From an uncultured archaeon (GTDB lineage: Archaea > Thermoproteota > Bathyarchaeia > Bathyarchaeales > Bathycorpusculaceae), in assembly GCA_938023865.1 (NCBI GenBank), contig CALJDG010000029.1, positions 1 through 35,073 of the forward strand: 35,073 nucleotides of DNA, in the 5' to 3' direction. How positions within the stretch are numbered: position 1 is the stretch's first letter; each line of letters begins with the position of its first letter. The notes below the pieces were generated by a model that saw nothing but the letters and a program-made list of their open reading frames with translations, made no database searches and was not told the origin of the DNA. The position numbers were made by a program, and so were the translations under genes. Of this stretch, positions 11,822 to 31,176 are shown piece after piece.

Positions 11822-11822
11822 G

Positions 11823-13073: not shown

Positions 13074-13086
13074 AACTTTATATTTT
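13074..13086 (+). promoter_or_regulatory. TATA-like box of the 13107 antitoxin-toxin operon
   Basis: AACTTTATATTTT is centred about 27 bp before GTG 13107. With standard archaeal spacing transcription would begin at or next to that GTG, giving a leaderless mRNA. Confidence 0.5.
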
Positions 13087-13106
13087 CTGTAATTAATGTT
13101 GAAACT

Positions 13107-13806: not shown

Positions 13807-13925
13807 TCGTTATCTATGGATGGCTATTTTGTATTTAGGAAGTTGTGAGCTTTTGAGTCTGCGCATCTTTCGGAAATTGTTAATATAGTTGAATCAGGGT
13901 TGGGTATTGAAAAGTCTTTGGGTTT

Positions 13926-14138
13926 TTGGCTTGGATTTTAACTATGGACAACATTGAGGTTTACTCTGTTGGTTTAGGTCATTATGAGAAGGCATTGCTC
14001 ATTGCCGAAGAAAATGGTGTTAGCGCTAATGATGCGCTTGCATATTTATTTATGAAAAACTATGGTTTAAAGGAAATTTATTCCTTTGACAAGCATTTTA
14101 ACCAATTAAAGGATATTGTCCGATTGCCCAAAAAATAA
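13926..14138 (+). pseudogene. C-terminal fragment of a PIN-domain toxin
   Basis: 70 codons resembling the last half of a VapC: VGLGHYEKALLIAEENGVS, ANDALAYLFMKNYG with the third acidic residue, YSFDKHFNQLKDIVRLP with the fourth. The N-terminal half with the first Asp and the Glu is missing. Upstream, in another frame at about 13870-13940, SEIVNIVESGLGIEKSLGFW looks like more of the same gene. No antitoxin accompanies it, so it is a decayed toxin. Confidence 0.7.
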
Positions 14139-14233
14139 TGGAGAAAAACTTTTCTGTTGTTTTACTTTAATCCGAGTTTTGTTTAAAAGTTTGGCTTTCA
14201 TACACCAGACGAATTGAGAACTCCCGTGGACTT

Positions 14234-14349
14234 TCATGCCAGCTCGTTATTTTTCAGGCCTTTCGGTGAATATTCTGCTATATAGCCCTTGGATTCCAAG
14301 AAATTTTTGATCACTTTCGGGATGTTTTCGTCAAGCAGGAACTTCGGTG
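14234..14349 (-). pseudogene. DUF5615 PIN-like toxin fragment
   Basis: Directly after the DUF433 antitoxin, in another frame, the minus strand reads KFLLDENIPKVIKNFLESKG, then YIAEYSPKGLKNNELA and a stop at 14234. This is the N-terminal third of a DUF5615 PIN-like toxin, the usual DUF433 partner. There is no start codon before KFLLDEN and the rest of the domain is absent, so the toxin is dead. Confidence 0.65.
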
Positions 14350-14579
14350 TGTTTGACGTAGTGTTCGCCTCTTATAACTTTGGCAGCCCAATTTAACGCT
14401 TCTTTGACCATGTTCTCATTTAAGCTAGGATAGTAGTCTGTGAGGATTTCTTTGATGGAGAGTCCAGCGGCGAGTAGTTCAATTACGTCGCTGACTAGGA
14501 TTCGTGTGCCTTTGAAGGTTGGTTTTCCATGGCAGATTTCGTCGTCGATAACTATGTACTTGCTAACTTCAACTCTCAT
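14331..14579 (-). CDS. DUF433 antitoxin
   Basis: 82-aa DUF433 protein with the signature IVIDDEICHGKPTFKGTRI at about 9-27, then VSDVIELLAAGLSIKEILTD and YPSLNENMVKEAL. Members are helix-turn-helix antitoxins that pair with DUF5615 or PIN toxins. The ATG at 14579 starts at the family N-terminus. The partner downstream survives only as a fragment, so this is an orphan antitoxin. Confidence 0.9.
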   Translation of the reverse strand: MRVEVSKYIVIDDEICHGKPTFKGTRILVSDVIELLAAGLSIKEILTDYYPSLNENMVKEALNWAAKVIRGEHYVKHTEVPA

Positions 14580-14635
14580 GGGAAATCACATGTGGTTTTA
14601 ATAAGCAATCATATTTTAAAAACTTTCTAGGGATT

Positions 14636-14733
14636 TTAACTTAGGCGTATTTGGTTTTTGTAGGCTTTTTCTATTGTTTCTAGGTCTTTGAGTGCGTCTT
14701 TTCCAGCTTTAATCCAAGTTTGTCTTAGGCTAA
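14636..14733 (-). pseudogene. Antitoxin-tail-like fragment (paralogue of 15490)
   Basis: A start-less open stretch reads LRQTWIKAGKDALKDLETIE and ends KAYKNQIRLS plus stop. Its last 20 residues nearly match the end of the protein at 15490 (DVLKDLETIEKSYRNQIKLS), and the DNA is clearly related. It appears to be the 3' end of a gene family of unknown function left behind next to a PIN gene. Confidence 0.5.
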
Positions 14734-14735
14734 TA

Positions 14736-15167
14736 TTATTCTAGTTCTTTTATTTTGATGTCTTGGCTGAATCGTTGAATGTCCTTGTCATTGGAATAAA
14801 GGGCTTCTGCTGATTCGTTTATTGCCGTTGCCACGATTAGAGCGTCGGGAAGTTTGCCTCCCCTTTTGGCTTTTAGGCTGGCGGCTGAATCTGCTATTTT
14901 GAAGGTGACTGGAACTATTTTGAAGTTGTTGCGGGTGAGGTCTTCGAAGAGGCTTTTCGTTTTTGTCGCCCCTCTTTCATCTTTTGCAGCGTAGAATCCT
15001 GTTAGAACCTCGGCCATGTTTATTGTGGAGATTATTCCCTGTTTTTCTCCTCTCATGAAGGAGTTTAGGAGAGCCTCTATTTTTGTTGCGTAGGGTTCTA
15101 TGCCTTCAAGAAAGTATATGAGGATGTTTGTGTCAAATGCTATTTTCGGTGGTTTCTTTTTCCCCAC
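14736..15167 (-). CDS. vapC: VapC-type PIN-domain toxin
   Basis: 143-aa PIN ribonuclease: IAFDTNILIYFLEG, STINMAEVLTGFY (Glu), GKLPDALIVATA (Asp) and LYSNDKDIQRF (Asp). All acidic positions are present. It overlaps the upstream AbrB-type gene by 28 bp and the two form an operon. Apparently intact. Confidence 0.92.
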   Translation of the reverse strand: MGKKKPPKIAFDTNILIYFLEGIEPYATKIEALLNSFMRGEKQGIISTINMAEVLTGFYAAKDERGATKTKSLFEDLTRNNFKIVPVTFKIADSAASLKAKRGGKLPDALIVATAINESAEALYSNDKDIQRFSQDIKIKELE

Positions 15168-15391
15168 TCTTTGCGAAGCCTCCTCTGGTACTCGACTGGA
15201 TCTCCGAAGACCCCTTTTCCCGACCCCTTCATTTCAGTAATCGGGTTGTAGGGTTTTAGTAGAAGACCTTCCTTTACCTCCTCGATTTCTAGGATGACTC
15301 CATGTTCAATTTTTAGTTTTTCTCGTAGTTTTTTGGGTATGACTAATTGTCCACGCATGCCGAGTTTAACCTTCTCAGTCACCGCGTTCAC
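15140..15391 (-). CDS. AbrB/MazE-type antitoxin
   Basis: 83-aa AbrB-type antitoxin: VKLGMRGQLVIPKKLREKLK forms the swapped-hairpin DNA-binding domain, ILEIEEVKEGLLLKPY completes it, and a toxin-binding tail follows (GDPVEYQRRLRKEW). GTG 15391 or GTG 15382 starts the gene. It is coupled to the PIN toxin by overlap. Confidence 0.88.
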   Translation of the reverse strand: MNAVTEKVKLGMRGQLVIPKKLREKLKIEHGVILEIEEVKEGLLLKPYNPITEMKGSGKGVFGDPVEYQRRLRKEWGKRNHRK

Positions 15392-15489
15392 TATCAGAAA
15401 CTAATTTATTCTGATAAATAAACTTTCTTACAAATCCATAGCTTATAGAATCTAGCTGTATGAGTTCAGCCTTAAGGGCTCCATTTATG

Positions 15490-15726
15490 TCATTTTGAGA
15501 GCTTTATTTGGTTTCTGTACGATTTTTCTATTGTTTCTAGGTCTTTAAGTACATCTTCGCCCGATGTTGCTGGTTGTTTGTTTGTTTTATGCAGTTTATG
15601 AAGTGTTCCTAATTCTTTTCTATGAGGTTTAAAGTATTTTGGCGTATTTTTTAGGATTAATTGCAGTGCTGTTATGATTTTGCTTAGCGGTTTGTGATAT
15701 GGGAGTGTGAGAGAACCGACAACCAT
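15490..15726 (-). CDS. Hypothetical protein, possible antitoxin relic
   Basis: 78 aa, not recognised. The C-terminal 25 residues (GEDVLKDLETIEKSYRNQI) match the fragment at 14636-14733, which gives some support that this stretch was coding. The N-terminal part is basic (KYFKPHRKELGTLHKLHKTN). No ribosome-binding site is obvious. It may be a decayed antitoxin. Confidence 0.4.
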   Translation of the reverse strand: MVVGSLTLPYHKPLSKIITALQLILKNTPKYFKPHRKELGTLHKLHKTNKQPATSGEDVLKDLETIEKSYRNQIKLSK

Positions 15727-15826
15727 TCATTTGAATCCGAATTTAAACATGTTCTTAGAAGCTAAAATCAGCGAGCCTTCAATTAGCCTCTCAAACAATT
15801 CACTGAAACTTTCTCCCTTACTCTTC
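15727..15826 (-). pseudogene. Fragment of a PF02697-type VapB antitoxin
   Basis: Minus-strand reading gives RKSKGESFSELFERLIEGS and a stop at 15727. GESFSELFERLIEG almost equals the signature in the antitoxin at 10440 (GESFSDLFERLIEG). The N-terminal strand and start codon are gone. The rest of 15840-16060 shows only short unrecognised open stretches. Confidence 0.55.
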
Positions 15827-16060
15827 CTAGACGTTTGAGGGAGTTGTTTGGTGTTGAGACGGGGATGATGTGCGTTTGGCTTTGGTTGAAGTTTTGAAGA
15901 AGGATAGTAGGGGTCATTGGGTTAGGAGGAAGATTGAATAAATGTTTTTCTGTTGGGAAATCGATGTTAAGGTTTGGCTCTTGGTTATTGAAGAATAACG
16001 TTTAGAGTTCTTGCGAAAGTGTTAAATGTGACTTTCGCACTTTTATACTTGGTGGTTTTG

Positions 16061-16309
16061 GTGACGGAGGCAAAAACTGTTAAAATTAGTAGGGAAATAT
16101 ATGAGAGACTTTGCGAGGTTGCGGGTGAACTTCAAGTGAAGTTGAAGCGTCGTGTGTCCCTTGACGAAGCCATGGAACACTTGTTAAGGGAAAGGAAACT
16201 AAAGGTAAGTGATTTTGCGGGGGCGTGGAGTATGAGTGACGAAGAAGAAGCGGAGATTCTTAAGAGCTTGAGGGAGGGGTGGTCTCGTTGGAAGTTCCCA
16301 AAAGAGTGA
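16061..16309 (+). CDS. Antitoxin of a VapBC pair
   Basis: 82-aa antitoxin with a DNA-binding head (AKTVKISREIYERLCEVAGE) and a second helix (RVSLDEAMEHLLRERK), the arrangement also seen at 13107. The acidic tail (SMSDEEEAEILKSLREGW) should contact the toxin. I use GTG 16061: GGTGG lies 5 nt upstream and a TTTATACT TATA-like box lies about 20 bp before it. The longer frame from 16019 would add a hydrophobic non-conserved stretch. It overlaps the toxin gene. Confidence 0.83.
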   Translation: MTEAKTVKISREIYERLCEVAGELQVKLKRRVSLDEAMEHLLRERKLKVSDFAGAWSMSDEEEAEILKSLREGWSRWKFPKE

Positions 16310-16716
16310 TTCTCGACTCAACAGTTATCATTGGACTTTTGCGGAATAAACCGAGGGAGGTGAAGCTTGTTCGGGCTATTGAAGCTGAAGCTGAGCTTGC
16401 AACTACCTCCGTAAATGCATTTGAGGTTTACTGTGGGGCGTATAAATCAAAGGATGCTGAGCGTAATCTTGTTTCTGCTAAGGGTTTTCTTTCAACTATT
16501 GAGCTTTTGGTGTTTGATGATAGTTCTGCTGAATTGGCTGGTCAAGTGTTGGCGGAGCTGGGGTCTAAGGGAAAAAGTATCGATTTCAGAGATCTTTTTA
16601 TTGGGTGTATCGCCCTTAGCAACGGTTTTACGGTAATTACCCACAACAAAAAACATTTTCAACAGATACCGAGGCTTCATGTGGTGGATCCTTCGGAGAT
16701 TAGGGTTGCCCATTAA
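16288..16716 (+). CDS. vapC: VapC-type PIN-domain toxin
   Basis: PIN ribonuclease of about 142 aa: VILDSTVIIGLLRN, TTSVNAFEVYCG (Glu), SIDFRDLFIGCIAL (Asp); the last position reads VITHNKKHF with Asn, a common VapC variant. TTG 16288 is preferred over GTG 16279 because a GGAGGGG site ends 8 nt before it. It overlaps the antitoxin gene in another frame. Apparently intact. Confidence 0.9.
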   Translation: MEVPKRVILDSTVIIGLLRNKPREVKLVRAIEAEAELATTSVNAFEVYCGAYKSKDAERNLVSAKGFLSTIELLVFDDSSAELAGQVLAELGSKGKSIDFRDLFIGCIALSNGFTVITHNKKHFQQIPRLHVVDPSEIRVAH

Positions 16717-16744
16717 GTTTTGTATATTTGAGAAAGTATTCCTT

Positions 16745-16978
16745 TTACTGTTGGTTAGTTGTTAGAGAAACTGATATATCCTTGCCATCAACGTTACAAT
16801 AAGCAGCGTTAACGAGCTTATTTAGACTAAAATACTTGGAAAAACCAGCATCCTTAAAAGGATTAACCCTAAAACCAACAGCCTGCTTAACCCCCAACCC
16901 TCCAGCAACCCTATCCAACCTTTCCAACTCCGCAAAGGACTCCACATTAACAAGCCGTCTAAACGAGGTTCCAAACCA
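16745..16978 (-). pseudogene. Fragment of a PLP-dependent (LysA-like) decarboxylase
   Basis: In a frame different from the overlapping methyltransferase, the minus strand reads RRLVNVESFAELERLDRVAG then VKQAVGFRVNPFKDAGFSKY. This resembles the internal VNVES-x2-EL...RVNP region of diaminopimelate/ornithine decarboxylases. The PLP lysine region and the C-terminal domain are absent. It is a short gene relic lying under the methyltransferase 3' end. Confidence 0.5.
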
Positions 16979-17565
16979 TTAGAGCCGCTATAGTCTTCTG
17001 CATCTTTCAAAAAACGCATAAACCTCAAAAACCTCTGCACAACAAAAACGTCGAAAAAGTCGAAGAAACGCCTAAAACGCTGAAAACTAGGCTCCCGAGT
17101 AACATAGACAAAACCGCCCCTCTTCAAAACCCGCCTGACCTCCTTCAAACAATTGAAGGGTTTAGGCAAATGATGCAAAACAGAAGAAACGGAAACCAAA
17201 TCAGCAACCCCGCCTTTGAAGGGCAGAAACTCAGCATCACACAAAACAAGGTTCAATGAGCGCGAATTCCCCAACCTTTTTCTGGCAACCTCCAACATCC
17301 GCCTGGAAATATCCGTTGCAACAACCATCTTGTAAAGTGGCAACTCAAAACCTGTGACAAAGCCCGTTCCACAACCAACATCAACACACAAACCCCTATC
17401 CTTCGACCCTTCAGCGATAAGGGCTAGGCTTCGAGAAACCTGCGCCCTCTCGTAGAGGCTTGAGCCTTCAGGATGCGCCCTCTCAAAAAACTCAGCCTCA
17501 ACGTCATGATGCCTAATATTAGCCCTCTTAACCTCAACATCGTTAACGCCGCTAACATCAACCAT
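16822..17565 (-). CDS. SAM-dependent class I methyltransferase
   Basis: 247-aa Rossmann-fold methyltransferase of the UbiE/Methyltransf_11 type; substrate unknown. Motif I is LCVDVGCGTGFVTG (about 59-72), followed by ATDISRRML, the acidic segment DAEFLPF, SSVLHHLP (motif IV) and LKRGGFVYVTREP. The N-terminal YERAQVSRSLALIAEGSK is a helical cap. From about residue 197 the frame runs over DNA that encodes a LysA-like fragment in another frame, so the native C-terminus is probably lost and replaced. It starts 29 bp after the hisC stop, so both likely share an operon. Confidence 0.82.
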   Translation of the reverse strand: MVDVSGVNDVEVKRANIRHHDVEAEFFERAHPEGSSLYERAQVSRSLALIAEGSKDRGLCVDVGCGTGFVTGFELPLYKMVVATDISRRMLEVARKRLGNSRSLNLVLCDAEFLPFKGGVADLVSVSSVLHHLPKPFNCLKEVRRVLKRGGFVYVTREPSFQRFRRFFDFFDVFVVQRFLRFMRFLKDAEDYSGSNGLEPRLDGLLMWSPLRSWKGWIGLLEGWGLSRLLVLGLILLRMLVFPSILV

Positions 17566-17594
17566 AACCTTCCAACCACAAAATCCGACGCAGC

Positions 17595-18696
17595 CTATTC
17601 AGCCAAAACCTCACGCAAACACTTCAAGAAAACATCATTCATCTCCGGAAGCCCAACAGTAACCCTCAAGCAACGCCCAATAACCGGCAAATCACCAAGG
17701 TTCTTAATGAAAACACCTCTTTCAAGAAGACCCTTATAAACATCGTCCGCATCCCTCTCTGGTCGAAAAGTTACAAAATTTGCCCTAGAATCAAAAACCT
17801 TAACGCTTCTGATTGAGCGCAGCTCCTTTATCAGCCTTTCCCGCTCCCTTTTTAACCTCTCTAACCAAGCCCTCTATAACATCACGCTTATCCAAAAGCC
17901 TCTCAACAAAACGTGCTACAACCGTGCCGACAGTGTACGGGATAACCTCAGAAAGCCCAGAAGCCAACCATTCATTTACAACCAGATAGCCAAAACGTAG
18001 CCCAGCCAAACCAAAAGCCTTAGAAAAAGTCCTCACAACAACAACGTTTTCCTTCTCAACCGCCTTACGACAGACGGAAACTTCACCAAACTCTGCGTAA
18101 GCCTCATCCACAACTATCAGTGCGGAGCACTCATCAGCCAAAGCCTCAACCTCATCCCAGCCAAACTCGTTCCCGGTCGGATTATTGGGCGAACAAACAA
18201 AAACAAGCCTAGTCCTAGGCGTGCATCTAGCCAAAATCCCATCAACATCAAGAGACAAATCGCTCCTGAGAGGAACCTCAACAACCTTGGCGCCGCAAAG
18301 CGAAACCCTCTTCCCATACATAAAAAAGCCCGGCACAACCGTAACAACTTCGTCGCCAACGCTCAAAAAAGACTGAACAATAAAATCAATCAAATGTTCC
18401 GCCCCGCTCCCAACACAAACACAATCGCCAGAAACACCGATATATCTGCCCAAAGCCTCCTTCAGCTCAGCCATAACGCCTGGACTGTAAAGCCTCAAAT
18501 CAACATCGCTTAAAGCCTCCACAAAAACCCGCCTCAAAAAATCAGCATCTACAAAAAAATTCTCGTTGGAATCCAACTTCAACACGTTACCTTTAGCCTC
18601 TAAAGGCAAGCCTACATAGCCAAGAAGCGAACCACCAAACGACCGCATAGCCTCAACCTTATTTTTTAGCCACTTCAGACTTCGCCGAGAAGCCAA
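17595..18696 (-). CDS. hisC: Histidinol-phosphate aminotransferase, frameshifted near the C-terminus
   Basis: Class II PLP aminotransferase that makes histidinol phosphate with glutamate in histidine synthesis. Motifs: KLDSNENFF, SGAEHLIDF, CSPNNPTGN, VVDEAYAEF and the PLP lysine in RTFSKAFGLAGLRFGY. The first frame ends at 17800 after about 298 codons. Dropping one base of the T5 run at 17849-17853 (A5 on the coding strand) restores RERERLIKELRS and VFDSRANFVTFRP, ending at 17595. The total is then about 366 aa, the family length. TTG 18696 has a GAGGTG site 6 nt upstream. No other his gene is nearby. Confidence 0.9.
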
Positions 18697-18720
18697 AGCC
18701 TACACCTCAAAATTTGATGG

Positions 18721-18792
18721 AGCCGGAGGTTGGACTTTCACCAACGTAAACGGCTCTGCAGGCCGCCGCTTAAATCCTCAGCTCACCCCGGC
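18721..18792 (-). tRNA. tRNA-Cys (anticodon GCA), atypical T-loop, CCA encoded
   Basis: 72 nt on the minus strand. Acceptor GCCGGGG pairs with CTCCGGC (one G-U). The anticodon stem GCGGC/GCCGT has loop CTGCAGA, anticodon GCA. Discriminator U73, the Cys identity base, is followed by CCA (18718-18720). The T stem GTTGG/CCAAC is perfect, but the loop is TGAAAGT in place of the usual TTCAAAT, losing T55 and C56. The D arm pairs only GCT/AGC and has one extra base before it. It is real in outline but unusual, or beginning to decay. Confidence 0.78.
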
Positions 18793-18799
18793 GCCTCTA

Positions 18800-18822
18800 A
18801 CATAAACAGTTTAAAAATTTTT
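18800..18822 (-). promoter_or_regulatory. TATA-like region of tRNA-Cys
   Basis: On the minus strand TTTTTAAACTGTTTATG lies about 10-30 bp before the tRNA 5' end, similar in layout to the box before tRNA-Thr(GGU). This suggests that the unusual tRNA-Cys is still transcribed. Confidence 0.4.
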
Positions 18823-18914
18823 ACTCAGTTTTTCTTTAACTTAACACTTCTTTATAATTCTTCTAAAGTTTGAGAGCTCGCTTTTTGGTCATGTCCGCCT
18901 AACTATTGGCAGGT

Positions 18915-19322
18915 TCAGGGCTCAACTCTCTTAAACCCTACAATTTTATCAAAATCCACGTCGTAACTTACAACTTCTGTTACATCATTCTCTAAAGCTA
19001 CTGCAACATGAATTGCATCCCTAGGCTTCATTAAATATTTTTCCATAAGTTCCTGCGCCTTAAAAATAGTACTTTTCTTAACTCCTAAAAGTTTCAAATT
19101 TGGAAAAGCAAGAAACTTCTTACCCATCTCTGCAGAAAATTCAAAACCAAAAACCTTACGGACAACCCATGCAATTTCATCCCACGTAATCGTTGCCGTG
19201 CAAGCTTCAACACTGCCTTCAGCGATTTTTAAAAGAAAATCCTTAGACTTTTTTGCCTCAACTATAACTTCAGAATCGTAAACAATAGGGTACAGAAAAA
19301 CGTTGGAGTCAACGTAAAGCAA
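18915..19322 (-). CDS. vapC: VapC-type PIN-domain toxin
   Basis: 135-aa PIN ribonuclease from TTG 19322 (MLYVDSNVFLYPIVYD): Glu in TITWDEIAWVVRK, Asp in KPRDAIHVAVAL and YDVDFDKIVGF. All acidic positions are present. The frame is open to an ATG at 19364, but that would add 14 residues ahead of the PIN core; a GAGG site supports the TTG. The start overlaps the AbrB-type antitoxin stop by 14 bp. Confidence 0.9.
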   Translation of the reverse strand: MLYVDSNVFLYPIVYDSEVIVEAKKSKDFLLKIAEGSVEACTATITWDEIAWVVRKVFGFEFSAEMGKKFLAFPNLKLLGVKKSTIFKAQELMEKYLMKPRDAIHVAVALENDVTEVVSYDVDFDKIVGFKRVEP

Positions 19323-19563
19323 ACCTTTCCTCAACCTCCCGCTCCACCAATCCTTCCAAATCAATTTTTTTAGTCAACTTTTTCCCAGCCACCGAACAGA
19401 AACTTTCAACAAATTCCTTAGGATCTACACCTGAACGAATTATTACTTCCCCCTCTCTAACTTCCATTATAACCTCTTCGCCAGCCATAATGCCTGCATA
19501 CTCCCTTATAACCTTCGGAATAACTATTTGCCCCTTCCGCCCAATCTTCCGCCTGATCCTCAT
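19309..19563 (-). CDS. AbrB/MazE-type antitoxin
   Basis: 84 aa from ATG 19563 (GTG 19572 is the alternative). The swapped-hairpin domain reads RRKIGRKGQIVIPKVIREYA, then GEEVIMEVREGEVIIRSG, and the tail (KKLTKKIDLEGLVEREVEER) would neutralise the PIN toxin encoded downstream. The 19573-19813 gap upstream shows no gene. Confidence 0.9.
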   Translation of the reverse strand: MRIRRKIGRKGQIVIPKVIREYAGIMAGEEVIMEVREGEVIIRSGVDPKEFVESFCSVAGKKLTKKIDLEGLVEREVEERFALR

Positions 19564-19827
19564 ATGAACCACAAAGAAAGAAATTGTTAAACCATTAAGA
19601 TAAACTTTTTCCTACATCCAATTCAAACTTTTAATGCATTTCTCCGCCTCATCCACCACGTTAATGGTTGCATACACTGAACGCATCACAGCACTCGGCT
19701 CAACCTTTCTAACCAGCAATTCATGATTCTCCCGCATAACTCGAGAAATCGAACTTTCACTTGCATATACAGCCCTAAATCTCAAGCTTTACAGCGCTGT
19801 TAAACAAAATGTTTTGCCTGGAAAACC

Positions 19828-19840
19828 TTTTATAATTATA
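19828..19840 (+). promoter_or_regulatory. TATA-like box of the 19856 antitoxin-toxin operon
   Basis: CTTTTATAATTAT is centred about 23-25 bp before ATG 19856, so the mRNA should be leaderless or nearly so. This supports the internal ATG as start. Confidence 0.5.
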
Positions 19841-19855
19841 ATAGATTATAATTTA

Positions 19856-20107
19856 ATGGTGTCTCGTTTGGCTGTGAAAGCGCGAGTGCGGAAAATTGGC
19901 ACAAGTTTAGGAATAATAATCCCTAAGGAAAAACTTGAGGAAATTAAGGCTAAAGAAGGAGATATCATAATCATCCCGAGAATTGAAAAACCCGTCAAAG
20001 AAATTAGGGGCATACTTAAAGGAACAACATTCCATTTTGAAAGGGAACACGCAGACAGGGATGAAAACATTGAAAAAACCTTCACAACCGCCGCAGAAGA
20101 ACATTAA
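19856..20107 (+). CDS. AbrB-type antitoxin
   Basis: 83-aa AbrB/SpoVT-like antitoxin: VKARVRKIGTSLGIIIPKEK is the DNA-binding hairpin (GTSLGIIIPKE in place of RGQLVIPKE), then KAKEGDIIIIPRIEKP and a charged tail. ATG 19856 is chosen over the upstream frame start at 19814 because the TATA-like box lies between them. Its end overlaps the PIN gene by 47 bp. Confidence 0.87.
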   Translation: MVSRLAVKARVRKIGTSLGIIIPKEKLEEIKAKEGDIIIIPRIEKPVKEIRGILKGTTFHFEREHADRDENIEKTFTTAAEEH

Positions 20108-20513
20108 ACAAACCTTAAACGCCGTTGTTTTTGACGCCCATGCATGGGTTGAATACGCCCTAGACAGCCCAAACGCCGAACTAATGGCCGAAAAACTTTC
20201 TTCGGCGCAACAAGCCCTCACACCTGCAACAGTCTTAGGCGAGCTAAAAGAGGCTATGCTAAGGCAAAACATACCAAGACAAAAGATCTCAGCCATACTC
20301 CACTACATCAAGAACAAAAGCACAGTCATCGACATCAACGCTGAAATCGCTGAAAAAGCCGGAGAAATAAACTTCAAACACAAAAGACGCACCAAAGACT
20401 GGGGCATGCTTGACTCCATAGTTTACGCAGTAGCCATAACCAAAAAGGGACAAGTGATAACAGGCGATCCACACTTTAAAAACCTAAGAAACACCATTTA
20501 CATAGGCAAATAA
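20061..20513 (+). CDS. vapC: VapC-type PIN-domain toxin
   Basis: PIN ribonuclease, 150 aa from ATG 20061, with a basic lead (KTLKKPSQPPQKNIKQ) before the domain. Acids: AVVFDAHAWVEYALD, ATVLGELKEAM (Glu), WGMLDSIVYAVAI (Asp), VITGDPHFKNL (Asp). The frame is open to 19983, but that ATG lies deep inside the antitoxin gene. This is the last TA pair of the archipelago. Confidence 0.9.
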   Translation: MKTLKKPSQPPQKNIKQTLNAVVFDAHAWVEYALDSPNAELMAEKLSSAQQALTPATVLGELKEAMLRQNIPRQKISAILHYIKNKSTVIDINAEIAEKAGEINFKHKRRTKDWGMLDSIVYAVAITKKGQVITGDPHFKNLRNTIYIGK

Positions 20514-22634: not shown

Positions 22635-23273
22635 TTATGAAAGAAGCATGAAGAGTGGTGCAGGAATTGCTACAAAGTCCTCACTTAATCGAATTTCTCT
22701 GCCTCTATAAGTTAATATTTCTCTGGTCCCCAACTGTTCACTTATTCTCACCAGCTTCTTCACATGATCGCTATCAATTTCCTCGCCGGAATAAACCTCT
22801 ATGGGAACAAGCCTTCCATTGATATCTACCAAGAAATCTATTTCCCTGCCAGGCTGCGGCTTATAATAGAACAGCTTTCTCTTTAACAACCTCAAATCCT
22901 GAATCATCTCTAAAGAGAACATCATATGGGCAATACTACTACTGGCAACAACCATTTCCGTCATAACCCCTTTCCAACGATCTGACATATTTAAAACCAT
23001 TGTATAGGCGTCTCTAATCCCGGCGCTCATCGCCTTAAAAGCATAGAACATCAACGGATCCCAAAAATAGAATTTCCTCGGAGTTTTCACCGGCGATCTG
23101 CGCCTACTAAAATCCTTCAGCTTTGCAACTTCAAGAAGCACAAACGCATCCACAAGATAGTCCAGATATTGCTTAACCGTATTATGCGAAATACCAAGTT
23201 TAAGCGCTAAACTATTGGCACTGGTTTCCTTTATCGGAACAGCCTCATACAACCCGCCAGGAGCTTCAAGCAA
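22635..23273 (-). CDS. DUF4143-type ATPase, C-terminal part (frameshifted)
   Basis: The C-terminal part of an archaeal ATPase with a DUF4143 domain: a winged-helix-like segment (SANSLALKLGISHNTVKQYL), YLVDAFVLLEV, FYFWDPLMFYAF, then the nuclease-fold-like end GREIDFLVDINGRLVPIEVY. One base in the C4 run at 23276-23279 breaks the frame between this part and 23231-23683; restoring it gives YNVLGELLEAPGGLYEAVP. Since the ATPase head is also lost, this is probably a pseudogene. Confidence 0.8.
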   Translation of the reverse strand: MLEAPGGLYEAVPIKETSANSLALKLGISHNTVKQYLDYLVDAFVLLEVAKLKDFSRRRSPVKTPRKFYFWDPLMFYAFKAMSAGIRDAYTMVLNMSDRWKGVMTEMVVASSSIAHMMFSLEMIQDLRLLKRKLFYYKPQPGREIDFLVDINGRLVPIEVYSGEEIDSDHVKKLVRISEQLGTREILTYRGREIRLSEDFVAIPAPLFMLLS

Positions 23274-23683
23274 TTCCCCAAGACATTGTAAAGCGTATCC
23301 TCATTCAGGCGCCATTTCACAGCATATTTAACCGCAAGATCAACAAACTCTGAATATACACCGGGATCAATTCTTCCCAAAGCAAGTTGCTGCCGAACCG
23401 CCAACGGAAAGCCACCTGTCAGAATATAGTCCTCAAAATACGCATACAATTCATTCAGATAGGCCTCAGCCATCTCCAGCACTGATGGCATTTTGCCACC
23501 TGGTTTCGTAATTTCGATAAAAGTATCAAGCCTTTTCTGAACCCCCAACAACCTCTCATGAGTAAAGAAATCTCTAAGAGCTCGTCTTCCAGCCAACTGC
23601 TCTTTATAGTATGCATATTTCAGCAAATCAGGCTTGTAGTAATGCCTTAAGAAAATGCTCTGCGGAATCCTACCTTGCAGCAA
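23231..23683 (-). CDS. Chimeric ORF: integrase tail joined to the middle of a DUF4143-type ATPase
   Basis: 150 codons from a TTG at 23683. The first 20 or so (LQGRIPQSIFLRHYYKPDLL) look like the catalytic-tyrosine end of an archaeal integrase. After KYAYYKE the reading becomes AAA_14/DUF4143-like: EQLAGRRALRDFF, YILTGGFPLAVRQ, YSEFVDLAVKYA. The Walker A and B ATPase head that should precede LAGRR is missing. So an integrase remnant and a truncated ATPase were joined in frame. The product is unlikely to work as either enzyme. Confidence 0.65.
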   Translation of the reverse strand: MLQGRIPQSIFLRHYYKPDLLKYAYYKEQLAGRRALRDFFTHERLLGVQKRLDTFIEITKPGGKMPSVLEMAEAYLNELYAYFEDYILTGGFPLAVRQQLALGRIDPGVYSEFVDLAVKYAVKWRLNEDTLYNVLGNCLKLLAGCMRLFR

Positions 23684-24530: not shown

Positions 24531-24629
24531 GTTCTACTCCCATACAATTCTATCGCAAGACTTAATATATCGCTTATTACTGAAATCGACATACATCAAA
24601 AATCGATACGTCAAAAAACGGACATAGCT

Positions 24630-24953
24630 TTAATCTTTCCTTACAGGGATTGGCCACATTATGGGGAACCACCAGAGGAACGGCCAGACTATCCAATGGG
24701 CTTCGGCTGTTTCCGGCTGTATCGTGAATGTTGTTCCGCACTTTCTGCATCTCAGCGTTCTTCTTCCAATGAGCTCTAAATCCTTTGAGCCGCATTTTGG
24801 ACAGGCGTAGTCCTCAACCTTTATGGCTGGGGGCTGGTAGGCTGACATTCTAAACCCTTTGATGAATGTTAGGGCCACGAACGCAAACATGAAGATGAAT
24901 ATTAGTAAGGCAATTATGAGGATGGCTGTCGCCAGAACAGATTCAATGCCCAT
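24630..24953 (-). CDS. Membrane protein with a zinc ribbon
   Basis: 107 aa. One transmembrane helix (about 7-31, VLATAILIIALLIFIFMFAF) is followed by a zinc ribbon, CPKCGSKDLEL...LRCRKCGTTF (about 51-75), and a Trp/Pro-rich hydrophobic end (WIVWPFLWWFPIMWPIPV) that may re-enter the membrane. The ribbon pattern resembles those of transcription-related or TFIIB-like proteins, but the function is unknown. The gene lies 6 bp after the stop of the upstream small gene (24960-25205), so both are one unit. Confidence 0.8.
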   Translation of the reverse strand: MGIESVLATAILIIALLIFIFMFAFVALTFIKGFRMSAYQPPAIKVEDYACPKCGSKDLELIGRRTLRCRKCGTTFTIQPETAEAHWIVWPFLWWFPIMWPIPVRKD

Positions 24954-24959
24954 AGCCTA

Positions 24960-25205
24960 TCACACAACCCCTGCAATGGGCTCCTCTTTTCGCTTCTTCC
25001 TCCTCCAAAGCCAAGCCTTTATGAATTCTTCTATTTCACGCTTATTGTATGGGTCTTTCCATGCTTTTTCGAGGGCTTGACACTCGTTTATGGCGCCTAT
25101 AAGCCCGAAGTAGGCTGTCAGCTCATGGTATAGTTGTTCTCGCTCTATCTTGTTTAGCCAAACCCGCATTTCATTCAGTATAACGTTTAAAACTACCTTG
25201 CTCAT
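24960..25205 (-). CDS. Hypothetical helical protein
   Basis: 81 aa, not recognised. It is mostly helical (VILNEMRVWLNKIEREQLYH, ECQALEKAWKDPYNKREIEE) and ends with a basic stretch (LWRRKKRKEE). The ATG 25205 has GAAAGGG a few bases upstream. The tight gaps to the HxxxH gene before it (33 bp) and the zinc-ribbon gene after it suggest an operon of three. Confidence 0.68.
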   Translation of the reverse strand: MSKVVLNVILNEMRVWLNKIEREQLYHELTAYFGLIGAINECQALEKAWKDPYNKREIEEFIKAWLWRRKKRKEEPIAGVV

Positions 25206-26045: not shown

Positions 26046-26203
26046 TTCTCCCTTTTATCCCATTTTCCAATGAATACATGTTTGTAGTCTTAATTATTTG
26101 TAATGTTTATTTTCCATGTTCCCTTCTGGCATGGATGCCGAGCCTTCATGGAATAAGAAAAAGCATAAGCCAAACAACAGAAAAAGTCCATGGAAAATAT
26201 GAG

Positions 26204-27985
26204 TTAAGGTTTTGGTTTTATCTTTTTCTTCAAAAGAACGGTTGTGATCACTGTGGTTAGCATAAATAGTGGTAAAATTATGTTTAATGGGAGTTCTGGT
26301 ATGACGTGGTATTGGTAGCAATAGCCGTTGTTGTCGCTGACTTCTCTATTTCCAGCGTTGTCATATGCGACGATGTAGTATGCGATTGTGGTTTCAGCTT
26401 CGTAGCCTTCGATTTCAGCCTCATATAGGCCTAACGTTTCGTTAAGGGTCATGGGTTTGGTTTTCCACTCCCCATAGTTTACACTGTAGCATAACGTGAC
26501 ATTTCTCACCCCGCTTTCATAGTCTGTTACGTTTACTTTCACCTTCACGTTCTGGAAGGGTTGAACGCTTTCCGAAGGCGGATCCTGAATTGGGGTTTCT
26601 ATTCTGGGCTTTTCGTAGTCTGGGTTTATCGTGAAGTTCAGGATGTAAACATTATCGGCTGTGTTTATTTCATCTGGAAGGGGCTTGATTTCCGATATAA
26701 TGGTGTAGTTTCCACAAGTGGCATTAGATGTGTTCCAGGTGAAATCATAGCTCCAAACATCTCCGGGATTGAAACTAACGCCCAAAAACCAAACGCCTTC
26801 CTTGAAAACGCTGTCAGCTCTAACCTCTATGCAAAACACACTCTCTGTTGCGGTGCCCTTTTTTTCAAAATAAACGGTTATCGTGACATTTTTCCCCACA
26901 TAAACCTGTTCGCTTGACAAAGTAACATTTTTAATGGCTAAATCGTGGGTTAAAAGCGAAAGCACGTATTTTGCAAGGTCGTCTCCTCCACCAGCCCACG
27001 TGCTTGGTGCTCCCTGCCACGCGTAGATGTGCCCGTCAGCGTAACCGAGCCGGCAGCCAACATAGTAGCCTATGCCAAAAGGCAAGTCAGCCAAGCGTTC
27101 CCAACTGTTTGTTGATATTGTGTATCGGTAAGTGCGGTTGTCCGGTATTGGTTCGGGATAGGCTTGATTGCCGCTTAAGGCGTAAATGTAGTCTTTCTGG
27201 TCTGGCATCCAGAACCCTATGTAAAGGAGTGAGCCTCCATCTCCAACTCCGCCAACCCCGCCGCTATGAGGATAAGCTGGTATGGAAGCCAACTCTGTTA
27301 GGGTGTTGCTTGTGATGTTGTAACACCAAAAATCGTTGAGGGGCTCAGTCTCAAGATATTCTCCCCGCAGGATATAGAGGCAATCGCCTTCAGCCCAAAC
27401 CATAGAAGCCCCATCGCCCATCCCAGGCAGCGAAACTGGAAGCTGCTCCCAAGTGTTGTTTGATGGGTGATAACGCATCAGAAATGTTGGGCGCTGTTCA
27501 CCGCCTATAGTGGCGTAAAGACAATTGTAGGAGCCGTCAACCCATGCTAATGCGTCCCCCTCTCCCTGGTCAGCCGGAGTGTTTGCCAAAGCCTCCCAAT
27601 CGTTTGACGAGATGCTGTAGCGGTAAAACCACCGGCGGCTTTCATCCGATGAGGCTCCATATAGGGCATAAATGAAATTATTGAAATCCCAAGCCAAGGC
27701 TGTTCCAGTCTCGAAGGCGTCACCATCAGGCTTGGGAGGAGAAGCCAACTCGACAAAGCTATCGTTAGATGGAGTATAACGGTAAAACCTTGTCCCCCTT
27801 GCAATGTATATGGCTTCTCCAGTTCCAACAACGGCTTCCCCATGAGTCCCTGTAACCGTATTCCCAACCCAAATCCAAGAACAGTCAGCCTTAACAGGCT
27901 GAAAACTAAACGTCAACGTTGAAACACTTATCAAAAGCAACGCAAGCACAATTCCAAAAACAGCCTTCCTCAACAATTTCATCAT
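26204..27985 (-). CDS. Secreted Kelch-like/CARDB surface protein with C-terminal anchor
   Basis: 593 aa, exported. A signal peptide covers about 1-33 (VFGIVLALLLISVSTLTFSF, then PVKA). Residues of about 40-345 form repeated blades (YRYTPSNDSFVELASPPKPD, YRYSISSNDWEALANTP, MRYHPSNNTWEQLPVSLPGM), a Kelch-type propeller. A CARDB domain follows (HDLAIKNVTLSSEQVYVGKN), then an Ig-like domain with Asn-glycosylation sites. The end is IPELPLNIILPLFMLTTVIT plus KKKIKPKP, a PEF-like motif, membrane helix and basic tail. It is probably displayed on the cell surface, binding glycans or proteins. Confidence 0.87.
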   Translation of the reverse strand: MMKLLRKAVFGIVLALLLISVSTLTFSFQPVKADCSWIWVGNTVTGTHGEAVVGTGEAIYIARGTRFYRYTPSNDSFVELASPPKPDGDAFETGTALAWDFNNFIYALYGASSDESRRWFYRYSISSNDWEALANTPADQGEGDALAWVDGSYNCLYATIGGEQRPTFLMRYHPSNNTWEQLPVSLPGMGDGASMVWAEGDCLYILRGEYLETEPLNDFWCYNITSNTLTELASIPAYPHSGGVGGVGDGGSLLYIGFWMPDQKDYIYALSGNQAYPEPIPDNRTYRYTISTNSWERLADLPFGIGYYVGCRLGYADGHIYAWQGAPSTWAGGGDDLAKYVLSLLTHDLAIKNVTLSSEQVYVGKNVTITVYFEKKGTATESVFCIEVRADSVFKEGVWFLGVSFNPGDVWSYDFTWNTSNATCGNYTIISEIKPLPDEINTADNVYILNFTINPDYEKPRIETPIQDPPSESVQPFQNVKVKVNVTDYESGVRNVTLCYSVNYGEWKTKPMTLNETLGLYEAEIEGYEAETTIAYYIVAYDNAGNREVSDNNGYCYQYHVIPELPLNIILPLFMLTTVITTVLLKKKIKPKP

Positions 27986-28059
27986 CTCTAGACATAACTA
28001 AAAGATGATTTTAAAAATAAAACTTGTGGAAAAATTCTTTACACTATTGCCATTTCCAC

Positions 28060-28140
28060 TTAACGCTTACGCCTCTTCTCGCTTTCAAAAGCCAACTCAT
28101 AAAGTTCAGAATTAACGCTCTGATGAAAATAGGCACTCAT
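28060..28140 (-). CDS. Possible 26-aa microprotein
   Basis: ATG 28140 preceded by a GGGGTT run starts MSAYFHQSVNSELYELAFES, ending EKRRKR. It lies in the 280-bp gap between two secreted-protein genes. The charged end and the possible ribosome-binding site are the only support. It could be the remains of a longer gene. Confidence 0.22.
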   Translation of the reverse strand: MSAYFHQSVNSELYELAFESEKRRKR

Positions 28141-28266
28141 TCAACCCCAACTAAGATAAAGCCAGAAAAATAAAAGAAAATCTGAAATAAGCCTTTAATT
28201 AAACTCCAATTTAATAAAATGGCGAAAAATGAGAATTTGTTGGATTACACTAAAAAAGTGGTGATG

Positions 28267-29169
28267 CTAAGGTAGCAGGTCGTTTGTGAAGGAGTCGCTT
28301 ATTGTTGGAGTTTGGTATTTGCAGTTCGCCTTAGCATAGTCAAAGGCTTCCTCAACCGTTACATCAGCTTGATTCTGAATGCTGTCGTAATAGTCCGCTT
28401 TTCCAACTGTGATTCCCTTATCTACGAAGTAGTATGTAAATTGACCGTTTTGGACGCTTTCAAACTCGTAGGATAAGCCGTTCTCGGAACACGCCATGAC
28501 TACGATTCTTCCTTCAGCCTTAAGGTCTGTCATTCCGCCAGCATAGCACGAATCGAAAATGAAAATTATCCTTGAAGTGTCGAAGCCGGAAAACATCGTT
28601 GCGAGTTCTCCATCCCAAATTAGCGATTCCGCCGTACACTCCCAGGGGACTATTGCCTCGTCTATGAGTTCTTTGTCTCCGTCGTTGGCTTTGCCTCTTG
28701 CACCATGACCGCTATAGAAAAACACAACTTCATCGCCTACGTCTTCGTTATCTTTCAACCAGTTGATCGCGTTTTCTATATATTGACGTGTTGCGTTGTT
28801 AGTTATATAGTCGGATATAAGCAAGCGAATGTTTTCTCGTGGATATCCATACACGCCTGTAAGCGCGTTAAGCACGTCTAAGGCGTCGTCGTCTGCATAT
28901 TCAAGATCATTCTGCTCTCCACTATAGTCTGAAATGCCTATAATGACAGCCCATTTATCTGCACCTTCGCCGAGTAATTCTCCTAAAACGCCTGTTGCCG
29001 CTTGTTTTGGCGGTTTCGCTGGCTTGCGCATGGCGGCTGGTCCCTTAACTGTGATTTTTGGGGTTATTTCCACGTCTGAGGCTTTAGCTGGAACAGCATA
29101 CGCCAGCGATGGCAAAATAACGCTTAACAATAGAATTGCCAATGTTCCAAGCAAAACTGTTCTTTTCAT
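28267..29169 (-). CDS. Secreted caspase-family (C14) peptidase
   Basis: Clan CD cysteine peptidase (metacaspase-like). From ATG 29169 (300 aa) a signal peptide KRTVLLGTLAILLLSVILPS ends in AYA before VPAKA; the frame is open to 29190. The p20-like domain has KWAVIIGISDYSG, the catalytic His in VFFYSGHGARG (about 155) and the catalytic Cys in IFIFDSCYAGGM (about 208), with EYADDDALDV as a regulatory or acidic loop. Arg/Lys or Asp specificity is not readable. Export makes a classical intracellular death role unlikely; processing of surface proteins is plausible. Confidence 0.92.
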   Translation of the reverse strand: MKRTVLLGTLAILLLSVILPSLAYAVPAKASDVEITPKITVKGPAAMRKPAKPPKQAATGVLGELLGEGADKWAVIIGISDYSGEQNDLEYADDDALDVLNALTGVYGYPRENIRLLISDYITNNATRQYIENAINWLKDNEDVGDEVVFFYSGHGARGKANDGDKELIDEAIVPWECTAESLIWDGELATMFSGFDTSRIIFIFDSCYAGGMTDLKAEGRIVVMACSENGLSYEFESVQNGQFTYYFVDKGITVGKADYYDSIQNQADVTVEEAFDYAKANCKYQTPTISDSFTNDLLP

Positions 29170-29293
29170 ATCCTTTACCGAACTTAACATAAATGCTGAA
29201 TGCTTAAAAGGCTTATTTCAAGCAAGGACGACGATGAAAACCAATTAACTCTTGCTATGTTTCGATAAAAAAGAGGAAGTTTTTAAGATGTCT

Positions 29294-30736
29294 TTACGGT
29301 TGAAGCGGGCCTGTTTTGTCGAATAAAGTCCAATCGTTAGTTGGCAGGTCACGCAGGTATGGTAGTTGCCACTCATATTCTGGATGCTCCTTCAAGAATT
29401 CTTCTACAATAAAGGGTGTTCCACACGGGTGTCCCCATCTTCCCCACATGCCTAAATTAGGATAGGCGAGGCTGCTGTTTGTTACTTTGCCATCATAGGC
29501 TCCGGAAGGATAATAGTCCTCCTTAGGGCATTCTTCCTCATGTCCACACAGGGTTCTGCAACCAGGATGCTCCGTTCCTCCATGCACATCGTAATGGTCA
29601 GACAGCATTAGCTTGCCTATTTCAACATCTATATTACCGTAGTATGTTTTATTTAATTGTAGCCATCTTTGATATCTACAGTATCCGCTTGTGGTTGGAT
29701 CCGACCAATTATAAGTGGTTTCGGAGCGGACGCCTGGACCCTTCGGATAGTTGCATGATCCGATGAAGCCGCTGAAGGTGCGTTCAATATCCCAGTGGTA
29801 ACAGCCAAGTTGTAGTGAGCATATTTCGCCTGTTTTTGCGTCTCCAATGAGCCATTCGTTTGAGTAGGCTCCGTTGCCTTTATATGTCATGACCTTAAGC
29901 CAGTCGTCTATGTTGTTGGTGTATTGCATCGCATATCTTACGCGGACGAATATGGGGATGCCTTCAATGTTGTAAACATGCATTTCCGGCAAGGTTGTCT
30001 CGCAAACCATTAACCCAGCGCTGTTCATAATCCAATCTTGACCGCTCCATATGCATCCTCCAGTGCTTTGATACAAAATTTCATATCCTTTCTGCGGCTT
30101 AATGTGGAAAATAACATTCCAGTAGCTGTCTCCAGCGTATCCCGCCCACGTGTTATGACCTATAACTATTTGCCCGTCGGCAGTGGCTTCCCCTGTTGCT
30201 ATAAATGCGCTGCAACCTTTACTTTGCATTGAAGGGGGCTTAATAAAACCTGAGTGCACACGCTTTTTTTCGAAGTAGGCATCCCAGTAGGCCTCTATAT
30301 CAGCCCAAGCGTTAAAAGCCACAATATCCCATATATCCCAGTTCTTATATCCAGCAGCCCTTAAACCTGCCACTATTCCCTCCATTTCAACCCTATATTC
30401 CGCTGGAACCTTCCGCCAAATGTAAAGCCTCGCAATATCACGCGCAACATACCACCAATCACCAAACTCCTCTTCACTCCAATAAACGTAAATTGCCGCA
30501 CTCCAAGAAATGTTTATGTTATCTGCAAGCAGATAACCATGCTGGAACCCTATTTGAAACGGATTGCCTTCCAGATGAACGAAGATCCACCCGTTTCTCT
30601 GTAAACGATATGCCCTAATCAAAAGCTTGTTTCCTTTATTCGCTTTGGTAGTAACAGTTGTATGTGCTGTTGCTTGTAGGGTACACGTCGAAAGTATCAA
30701 TATAATACACAACAAGGAAACAAAAAACTTTTTCAT
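29294..30736 (-). CDS. Secreted C45-like Ntn-hydrolase
   Basis: 480 aa with a signal peptide at about 1-24 (VSLLCIILILSTCTLQATA). It resembles the C45 peptidase / acyl-CoA:penicillin acyltransferase / phospholipase B-like Ntn-hydrolases: GNPFQIGFQHGYLLA (58-72) is the usual N-terminal motif, and SKGCSAFIATGEATADGQIV has Cys175, the expected nucleophile after self-cleavage of the Gly-Cys bond. CNYPKGPGVR and HPGCRTLCGHEEECPKED add a Cys-rich C-terminal part. Substrate unknown: acyl amides or lipids are possible. ATG 30736 has a GGGGGAG site upstream. Confidence 0.85.
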   Translation of the reverse strand: MKKFFVSLLCIILILSTCTLQATAHTTVTTKANKGNKLLIRAYRLQRNGWIFVHLEGNPFQIGFQHGYLLADNINISWSAAIYVYWSEEEFGDWWYVARDIARLYIWRKVPAEYRVEMEGIVAGLRAAGYKNWDIWDIVAFNAWADIEAYWDAYFEKKRVHSGFIKPPSMQSKGCSAFIATGEATADGQIVIGHNTWAGYAGDSYWNVIFHIKPQKGYEILYQSTGGCIWSGQDWIMNSAGLMVCETTLPEMHVYNIEGIPIFVRVRYAMQYTNNIDDWLKVMTYKGNGAYSNEWLIGDAKTGEICSLQLGCYHWDIERTFSGFIGSCNYPKGPGVRSETTYNWSDPTTSGYCRYQRWLQLNKTYYGNIDVEIGKLMLSDHYDVHGGTEHPGCRTLCGHEEECPKEDYYPSGAYDGKVTNSSLAYPNLGMWGRWGHPCGTPFIVEEFLKEHPEYEWQLPYLRDLPTNDWTLFDKTGPLQP

Positions 30737-31176
30737 ATTCTCCCCCTAAGGAACAAATCTAATAACTCAATTTAAGAGTTTTGTGAAATAATCTTCTATT
30801 TGGGTCAATTTTAACTTTAAACTTCTTATATCTCTGTGTGTGCTTGTGTGCGTGTGCGCCTCTGCACAGTGTAAATGTCTCTCTGTTTCTTATAGAATCA
30901 AGCATTGTTCTTCTTTATAGATGAAATAATAGCCTCTCCGCTAACTTATCTCTATGTTATTTCATCCTCTTTTTTCTTCTTTAGTGATCTTATCATCTTA
31001 TATGCTTGTGCACCTTTCATCGGCATTTTTGGGTTTTCGCCTCCATTTCTAAGTTTTCCTGTTTCAAGTCGGGTTTTGCTTGTTCTTTATATGTTTGTCT
31101 GGAGCCTTTGTGATGCATTGTTTGAGAGCAAAATCTAATAGTTTAAAGTCTTGCAATACTTTAATGGTCAGCTGAG
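30737..31176. other. Long intergenic region with a 10-bp inverted repeat
   Basis: 440 bp without a convincing gene. GATGAAATAA (30920-30929) and TTATTTCATC (30957-30966) form a perfect 10-bp inverted repeat. A (TG)n-rich stretch lies at about 30832-30860. A plus-strand frame at 30905-31138 is hydrophobic and low in complexity. On the minus strand KMPMKGAQAYKMIRSLKKKK ends near 30960 and looks protein-like but has no good start. Confidence 0.4.

What the first reader, a model, noticed from the sequence alone, without database searches (positions are those of the whole stretch)
26204..30736. Secreted caspase beside a C45-like Ntn-hydrolase and an anchored Kelch/CARDB protein
Three consecutive minus-strand genes all have signal peptides. 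The middle one is a caspase-family peptidase with clear SGHG and DSCYAG sites, the last a likely self-processing Cys hydrolase, the first a surface propeller with a PEF-like anchor. An extracellular caspase could process the surface protein, or all three could act in peptide or lipid scavenging.
Basis: partly seen in the sequence, partly recalled or inferred. Interest (0 to 1): 0.55.

Follow-up and report, generated by a model that had tools for sequence, protein, structure and literature searches.

The report
Solitary secreted metacaspase in an archaeon
A bathyarchaeal genome carries three neighbouring genes for secreted proteins; the middle one belongs to a scattered family of secreted metacaspase-like proteases that probably cut proteins outside the cell, but relatives show no sign that the three genes form a working unit.

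Summary
Three minus-strand genes, each with a signal-peptide-like N-terminus, encode a C45/phospholipase-B-like Ntn hydrolase (29294-30736), a caspase-fold peptidase (28267-29190) and a Kelch-propeller protein with an anchor-like tail (26204-27985). The functional link is not supported. Of 39 caspase loci in other genomes (close and distant), none has the Kelch protein nearby and one, a distant relative in a Thermoplasmatales peptidase island, has a C45-like neighbour. In the class, 10 of 256 genomes match both families; they are adjacent only here. Both intergenic gaps hold a T-run and an AT-rich box (by eye). The two congeners searched lack the caspase and C45 genes. The caspase is of modest interest: it belongs to a single-domain, exported, metacaspase-like subfamily with a conserved segment (consensus ATG[VI]LG) before the catalytic domain, patchily spread over several archaeal groups and some bacteria. 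Its predicted fold (pLDDT 89.7) matches metacaspases (Z 24), with the His/Cys dyad and acidic S1 residues that fit Arg/Lys, not Asp, cleavage; 'caspase sites' in the Kelch protein are the wrong test. Most likely role: stand-alone extracellular Arg/Lys protease for peptide scavenging. New member of a known kind.

The parts
29294..30736 (-). C45/phospholipase-B-like Ntn hydrolase with signal-peptide-like N-terminus, 480 aa; candidate nucleophile Cys175 after Gly174, HNTW motif at 194
28267..29190 (-). Secreted metacaspase-like peptidase, 307 aa (likely start at 29169): signal peptide, conserved VEITPKITVKG...AATGVLG segment, catalytic domain about 79-307 with H162 and C215
26204..27985 (-). Kelch beta-propeller surface protein, 593 aa, signal-peptide-like N-terminus, C-terminal IPELP-hydrophobic-basic tail
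29191..29293 (-). Intergenic, 103 bp: T-run after the C45 stop and a TATA-like CTTTTAAG upstream of the caspase (by eye)
27986..28266 (-). Intergenic, 281 bp: T-run after the caspase stop and an AT-rich box upstream of the Kelch gene (by eye)

Best explanation
The caspase-like gene encodes a stand-alone, Sec-exported, metacaspase-type cysteine endopeptidase. Steps shown by sequence or model: a hydrophobic N-terminal signal with an AYA|V cleavage context; a conserved pre-catalytic segment with consensus ATG[VI]LG; a metacaspase-like caspase fold with the H162/C215 dyad; Asp213 and Asp102 at positions that line the Arg/Lys S1 pocket in metacaspases; three of four metacaspase calcium-ligand Asp positions. 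Steps inferred: after export the enzyme binds calcium, is relieved of inhibition by or loses its N-terminal segment, and cuts proteins after Arg or Lys outside the cell to feed the organism's peptide metabolism. The gene is a patchily inherited accessory gene. Its neighbours here, a C45/PLB-like hydrolase and a Kelch surface protein, are other secreted accessory genes in the same variable stretch, not dedicated partners.
For: Model mean pLDDT 89.7, pTM 0.85. Foldseek's best hits are metacaspases; VIA Z 24.3, rmsd 2.0 over 212 residues to AtMCA-IIf. A profile of 26 relatives matches metacaspase-4 at 2.6e-30 and Yca1 at 1.2e-27. H162, D177, D193, D213 and C215 are invariant, D102 and D222 at least 90%, in those 26 rows. 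TbMCA2 S1 residues Cys92, Asp95, Ser156, Asp211, calcium Asp173, 189, 190, 220, and the Arg/Lys preference come from passages of PMC4357240. Relatives with a complete N-terminus mostly show a hydrophobic stretch there (by eye). No neighbour family apart from the caspase was found in more than 3 loci. Caspase and C45 matches are absent from congeners G064 and G065. Gingipain-like C25 peptidases, also Arg-cutting clan CD enzymes, made up 41-45% of signal-peptide-bearing peptidase genes in one sediment study (PMC6752024, passages).
Against: No activity, localisation or expression data. The fourth calcium position is Gly194 and TbMCA2 Cys92 aligns with Ala99 here, so calcium dependence is uncertain. 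Two relatives outside the 26 rows (L041, L045) read FGSC and lack the S1 Asp. No Lys/Arg in the N-terminal segment stands out as a cleavage site: K59 is K/R in 22 of 26 rows but position 60 is Pro in 19 of 26; K62 is K in 7 of 26; there is no evidence that type I metacaspases lose this region for activation (PMC4357240, passages). The PADLOC caspase model also matches (57.2 bits), though that may only report the domain. Legumains and caspases follow closely in the structural list. A nutritional role is argued from location and analogy.
Confidence: 0.62

Rival explanations
1. The three genes form a functional unit: the secreted caspase matures the C45 proenzyme or trims the anchored Kelch protein.
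For: Same strand, adjacent, all with signal-like N-termini. One distant archaeal locus, L081, also has a secreted caspase-like and a C45-like gene side by side, about 625 bp apart and convergent.
Against: 0 of 39 other caspase loci have a Kelch match and only L081 a C45 match. 0 of 5 contigs with the Kelch propeller (3.3 to 17 kb) hold a caspase or C45 match. In the class 10 of 256 genomes match both PF00656 and NF040521, adjacent only in G000, although in fragmented genomes a pair split over contigs would be missed. C45-family enzymes are expected to self-cleave (recalled). Gaps of 103 and 281 bp with T-runs do not look like one transcript (by eye).
Confidence: 0.1
2. The secreted caspase-like protein is a quality-control or shaving protease of the cell surface (trimming S-layer or surface proteins) rather than a nutritional enzyme.
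For: Single domain, exported, single Peptidase_C14 match in the genome. Other surface-type proteins exist in the genome, such as a NosD-like protein with a similar tail on contig 86 (by eye) and proteins matching the middle of the Kelch protein on contig 80.
Against: Patchy distribution: Peptidase_C14 in 25 of 256 class genomes, absent from both congeners, so it is not part of a shared housekeeping set.
Confidence: 0.15
3. It is a conflict protein: a secreted killing or anti-viral protease used against competitors or infected neighbours.
For: Patchy distribution and a tree that does not follow relationships; the PADLOC caspase model matches (57.2 bits) and the EACC1-caspase model matches below its cut-off; action on the cell surface or fratricide by extracellular metacaspases was suggested in PMC3501461 (passages).
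Against: No recurrent partner gene beside it; a signal peptide fits poorly with an intracellular defence effector.
Confidence: 0.08

Closest known systems
Type I metacaspases (Yca1 4f6o, Candida glabrata metacaspase 7qp0/7qp1) and prokaryotic metacaspases/orthocaspases (C14B)
   Same: Fold, His/Cys dyad, acidic S1 positions, three of four calcium Asp positions, N-terminal segment before the catalytic domain.
   Different: Exported, no other domain found, its own conserved pre-catalytic segment. The survey PMC3501461 reported metacaspases in only 5 of 114 archaeal genomes, all Euryarchaeota, although 46 sequences had one N-terminal helix that may be a signal peptide (passages).
Globupain and other secreted C11 peptidases
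   Same: Exported archaeal clan CD peptidase with signal peptide; calcium and autoprocessing after Lys, Arg preference (PMC10315481, abstract and passages).
   Different: Family C11, not C14; two-chain maturation shown there, nothing shown here.
Gingipain-like C25 peptidases of sediment archaea
   Same: Exported Arg-cutting clan CD role in protein use (PMC6752024, passages).
   Different: Different family with a Propeptide_C25 domain; present in the L081 island, not among these three genes.
C45 proenzymes / phospholipase-B-like proteins (PLBD1 4bwc, PLBD2 3fbx)
   Same: The neighbour passes both family cut-offs and aligns with PLBD2 across the nucleophile and HNTW motif.
   Different: A 480-aa form with a signal-like N-terminus; in 300 phylum genomes its only close relatives are two 41%-identical proteins in G115 without a hydrophobic N-terminus by eye.

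Membership tests
Metacaspase / orthocaspase (C14B) | Caspase-like fold | tested here: met
   pLDDT 89.7; Z 24.3, rmsd 2.0 over 212 residues to a metacaspase
Metacaspase / orthocaspase (C14B) | Catalytic His/Cys dyad | tested here: met
   H162 and C215 invariant in 26 rows
Metacaspase / orthocaspase (C14B) | Acidic S1 pocket for Arg/Lys (TbMCA2 Asp95, Asp211 positions) | tested here: met
   D213 invariant, D102 at least 90%; positions from alignments with Yca1 and metacaspase-4 and from PMC4357240 passages; the step to TbMCA2 numbers is by offset, inferred
Metacaspase / orthocaspase (C14B) | Four-Asp calcium site | tested here: inconclusive
   D177, D193, D222 conserved, fourth position is Gly194
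Metacaspase / orthocaspase (C14B) | Cleavage after Arg/Lys | not testable with these tools
   needs purified enzyme
EACC1-associated caspase (NF047832) | Score over the curated cut-off | tested here: not met
   42.3 bits against 140
C45 autoproteolytic acyltransferase/hydrolase (NF040521) | Score over cut-off and Cys nucleophile | tested here: met
   136.9 against 85; GCSA with Cys175
C45 autoproteolytic acyltransferase/hydrolase (NF040521) | Autoproteolysis | not testable with these tools
   needs the protein; the single-sequence model also failed, pLDDT 31.9
Kelch propeller | Kelch repeats over cut-off | tested here: met
   Kelch_6 60.7 against 25.3
CARDB | Score over cut-off | tested here: not met
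   18.9 against 22.7
Archaeosortase-anchored (PEF-CTERM-like) protein | Recognised C-terminal sorting model and a sortase in the genome | tested here: inconclusive
   No NCBIfam sorting model among the 4 families listed at E up to 1 (filters can drop short models); an Exosortase_EpsH family protein is in G000, 35.1 bits against 25.7
Sec signal peptide | Call by a dedicated predictor | not testable with these tools
   Only a hydropathy rule was run

The most novel reading that the evidence does not exclude
An undescribed subfamily of secreted, single-domain metacaspases, marked by a conserved ATG[VI]LG segment just before the catalytic domain and an EEAFDYAK...Q.P...D.F..D tail, has moved among archaea of several phyla (many from heat-loving lineages, a label that is recalled) and some bacteria and works outside the cell as an Arg/Lys protease, so that some metacaspases are digestive enzymes rather than intracellular cell-death or stress proteases.
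Probability: 0.45. Interest if true: 0.45.

Novelty: new member of a known kind. Interest (0 to 1): 0.28.

Why it matters
Prokaryotic metacaspases are usually discussed as stress or death proteases, and an early survey found few archaeal ones (PMC3501461, passages). A coherent exported subfamily in archaea with a conserved pre-catalytic segment would give a compact model for how metacaspases are kept silent and activated, and a candidate enzyme for extracellular protein breakdown. The claimed three-gene partnership would have mattered more, but the evidence is against it.

Tried and rejected
Three-gene operon or processing unit: rejected on lack of recurrence. Clean empty site in congeners: not found. 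In G064 pieces flanking the trio are present in another order (the counterpart of window 24629-25114 lies between those of 32386 and 32422), and in both G064 and G065 the gene to the left of the 31238 counterpart is another one, the same in both by eye. Caspase-type Asp sites in the Kelch protein: not searched, because the S1 residues point to Arg/Lys. A conserved autocleavage Lys in the N-terminal segment: looked for, none convincing. C45 fold: single-sequence model of no use (mean pLDDT 31.9), so no fold search was made with it. No paper on secreted or extracellular metacaspases or orthocaspases turned up: (five phrases, 0 papers) and the listings; this covers only the held open-access library, and PMC3501461 already notes probable signal peptides on some metacaspases. 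The VIA list shows legumains and caspases close behind metacaspases (Z about 20 to 21.5), so fold alone does not fix the subfamily; the sequence profile matched only metacaspases and GSU0716 at E up to 0.001.
Full report
What is there. In transcription order they encode a 480-aa C45/phospholipase-B-like hydrolase (29294-30736), a 307-aa caspase-fold peptidase (28267-29190) and a 593-aa Kelch protein (26204-27985). Scores are over the curated cut-offs for C45_proenzyme, Phospholip_B, Peptidase_C14 and Kelch_6, but CARDB and DUF7743 are below theirs. By a simple hydropathy rule 6 of 34 non-overlapping window ORFs of at least 100 aa have a signal- or TM-like N-terminus; three of the six are these neighbours. 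No dedicated predictor was available. The caspase probably starts at residue 8 (29169), where many relatives start (by eye).

The genome. The window is contig 29 of a 1.65 Mb, 115-contig assembly (80.4% complete, 5% contaminated) and holds its only Peptidase_C14 match. It is bathyarchaeal by inference: contigs of two genomes of its own family, G041 and G086, have the same length and match as named records of Candidatus Bathyarchaeota (L063, L077).

Do the neighbours recur? Caspase relatives came from 90 genomes of the window's family (10 of 90 with a match, the window's own included) and from the named genome collection (32 loci of 75 candidate stretches), with up to 10 kb on each side where contigs allowed. 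In one search, 41 loci besides the window had a caspase match by phmmer at E up to 0.001; two repeat others (L063, L077), leaving 39, among them distant relatives and several loci of one genome (G066). None of the 39 has a match to the Kelch protein, and one, L081, has a C45 match. None of 5 contigs with the Kelch propeller has a caspase or C45 match. Apart from the caspase, no neighbour family was found in more than 3 loci (25 largest clusters printed in order of size). Many contigs are short and single-sequence phmmer can miss distant proteins, so I also searched both families in 256 genomes of the class: Peptidase_C14 in 25 of 256 (23 over cut-off), C45_proenzyme in 90 of 256 (80 over cut-off). 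By my comparison of the two lists 10 genomes have both (G000, G041, G072, G416, G430, G439, G480, G481, G482, G490); only in G000 are they adjacent. The nearest pair on one contig elsewhere (G439) is about 76 kb apart; in G041, G072, G430, G480, G482 and G490 they lie on different contigs, where neighbourhood across a gap cannot be excluded.

The one exception. L081, a Thermoplasmatales archaeon, has a signal-bearing caspase-like protein (677 aa, 22% identity, no Pfam match at 0.001) about 625 bp from a convergent AAT/C45-like gene, within a run that includes M28, C25 with its propeptide, peptidyl-arginine deiminase and C10 genes. That looks like an extracellular peptidase island and supports a scavenging reading in general, not a specific partnership: both proteins are distant relatives of those here.

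Local genome plasticity. Congeners G064 (91% complete) and G065 (97%) have no match to the caspase or C45 protein. DNA to the right of the trio (from 31238), and in G064 also part of the left side (24629-25114), has counterparts there in other arrangements, and in both congeners another gene, the same in both by eye, sits left of the 31238 counterpart. So the trio sits in a variable stretch. The two intergenic gaps (103 and 281 bp) each hold a T-run after the stop codon and an AT-rich box before the next start (by eye), which argues against a single transcript but does not exclude it.

The caspase itself. An alignment of 26 relatives shows invariant S160, H162, D177, D193, D213 and C215 and a C-terminal EEAFDYAK block. 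At 65-67, A, T and G are present in 24, 25 and 25 of 26 rows; the following residues are V or I, L and G in most. The segment before the catalytic domain (33-77) is nearly as conserved as the domain in the five closest rows listed first (77, 68, 62, 55, 71% against 74, 80, 76, 70, 69%) but less so in the others with data (24-50% against 44-69%). The AlphaFold model has mean pLDDT 89.7 and pTM 0.85, with two short strands at 37-48 in that segment. Best structural matches are metacaspases, with legumains and caspases behind.

Specificity. In TbMCA2 the S1 pocket was assigned to Cys92, Asp95, Ser156 and Asp211, and a calcium site to Asp173, Asp189, Asp190 and Asp220; metacaspases prefer Arg and Lys (PMC4357240, passages). 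Through the alignments with Yca1 and metacaspase-4 I map these to Ala99, Asp102, Ser160, Asp213 and to Asp177, Asp193, Gly194, Asp222. The S1 acids are kept, one calcium ligand is not. The mapping to TbMCA2 numbers is by offset, hence inferred. So the enzyme should cut after Arg or Lys, and calcium dependence is open. Two further relatives in the window's own family (L041, L045) have FGSC and lack the S1 Asp.

Distribution and descent. In one search the closest relatives are three Bathyarchaeota bins (72-77%, one partial), a Brockarchaeota bin (72%), Sulfolobales and Nezhaarchaeota (66%), Desulfurococcales (63%), Archaeoglobaceae (56%) and Chloroflexi (53%); two further Bathyarchaeota records stand at 55 and 44%. 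In the window's own family, matches over 100 residues or more are 26-64% identical. That several of these bins come from hot springs is my reading of taxa and bin names, not a call. In a 30-row tree the window falls with six of these archaeal rows (support 80/88, not strong), and G041/G087 of its own family fall with Methanosuratincola and a Methanomethylicia bin (97/95). Holding window, G041 and G087 together is rejected (p-AU 1.8e-5), as is adding G075 (p-AU 1.1e-4); holding the window with two Bathyarchaeota rows is not rejected (p-AU 0.30). The tree's rows were those with E below 1e-20 and over 170 aa, less the duplicates and two fragments (L039, L060). This fits horizontal transfer, but paralogy with loss and wrongly binned contigs remain possible.

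The other two proteins. C45-like: close relatives of this long form are rare (7 of 300 phylum genomes match; besides the window's own only G115, with two copies at 41%, is close, the other five have E of 2.5e-7 or weaker). The G115 genes lie near what look like transporter and amino-acid enzyme genes (by eye). Kelch: the propeller recurs at 65-74% in five genomes of five other genera, in four of them within longer proteins. Its C-terminal third (about 450-593) matches many proteins of the family, some over only the last 33-36 residues at 61-68%. An exosortase-family protein is present in G000 and in all 67 of 90 family genomes counted with it.

Judgement.

Noticed in passing
window 30835-30978: Non-coding repeated element upstream of the C45 gene, with CA-rich ends and an inner GATGAAATAA/TTATTTCATC inverted repeat; two further copies in the same genome (82% at G000:C86:5170-5305, upstream of a NosD-like secreted protein by eye; 74% at G000:C60:107-231), none found in the two congeners; no Rfam match at gathering threshold.
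   Followed up: partly
window 26156-26278: DNA at the Kelch gene's 3' end and just beyond matches G000:C86 at 78% (L102 291-412), a contig that also carries the upstream repeat: surface-protein genes here may share swapped ends.
   Followed up: no
window 10649-20513: About eight PIN/VapC-like ORFs (by eye: 10649, 11420, 12279, 13345, 14736, 16279, 18915, 19983).
   Followed up: no
window 22635-23683: Two overlapping ORFs in different frames that look like one broken ATPase of the DUF4143 kind (by eye).
   Followed up: no
L081 2713-17135: Thermoplasmatales island with M28, peptidyl-arginine deiminase, C25 with propeptide, caspase-like, C45-like and C10 genes.
   Followed up: partly
L054 10001-10846; L041 920-1831; L045 7948-8634: Departures at catalytic motifs: SSHG instead of SGHG in L054; FGSC instead of FDSC in L041 and L045, a separate branch without the S1 Asp.
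   Followed up: no
L039 861-1843: A caspase relative in G086 broken into two ORFs (same contig as L077).
   Followed up: no
L079 10001-10129: An 81%-identical match to only residues 264-306 of the caspase in a Nitrososphaeria bin, with no caspase ORF found there: possibly a gene remnant.
   Followed up: no
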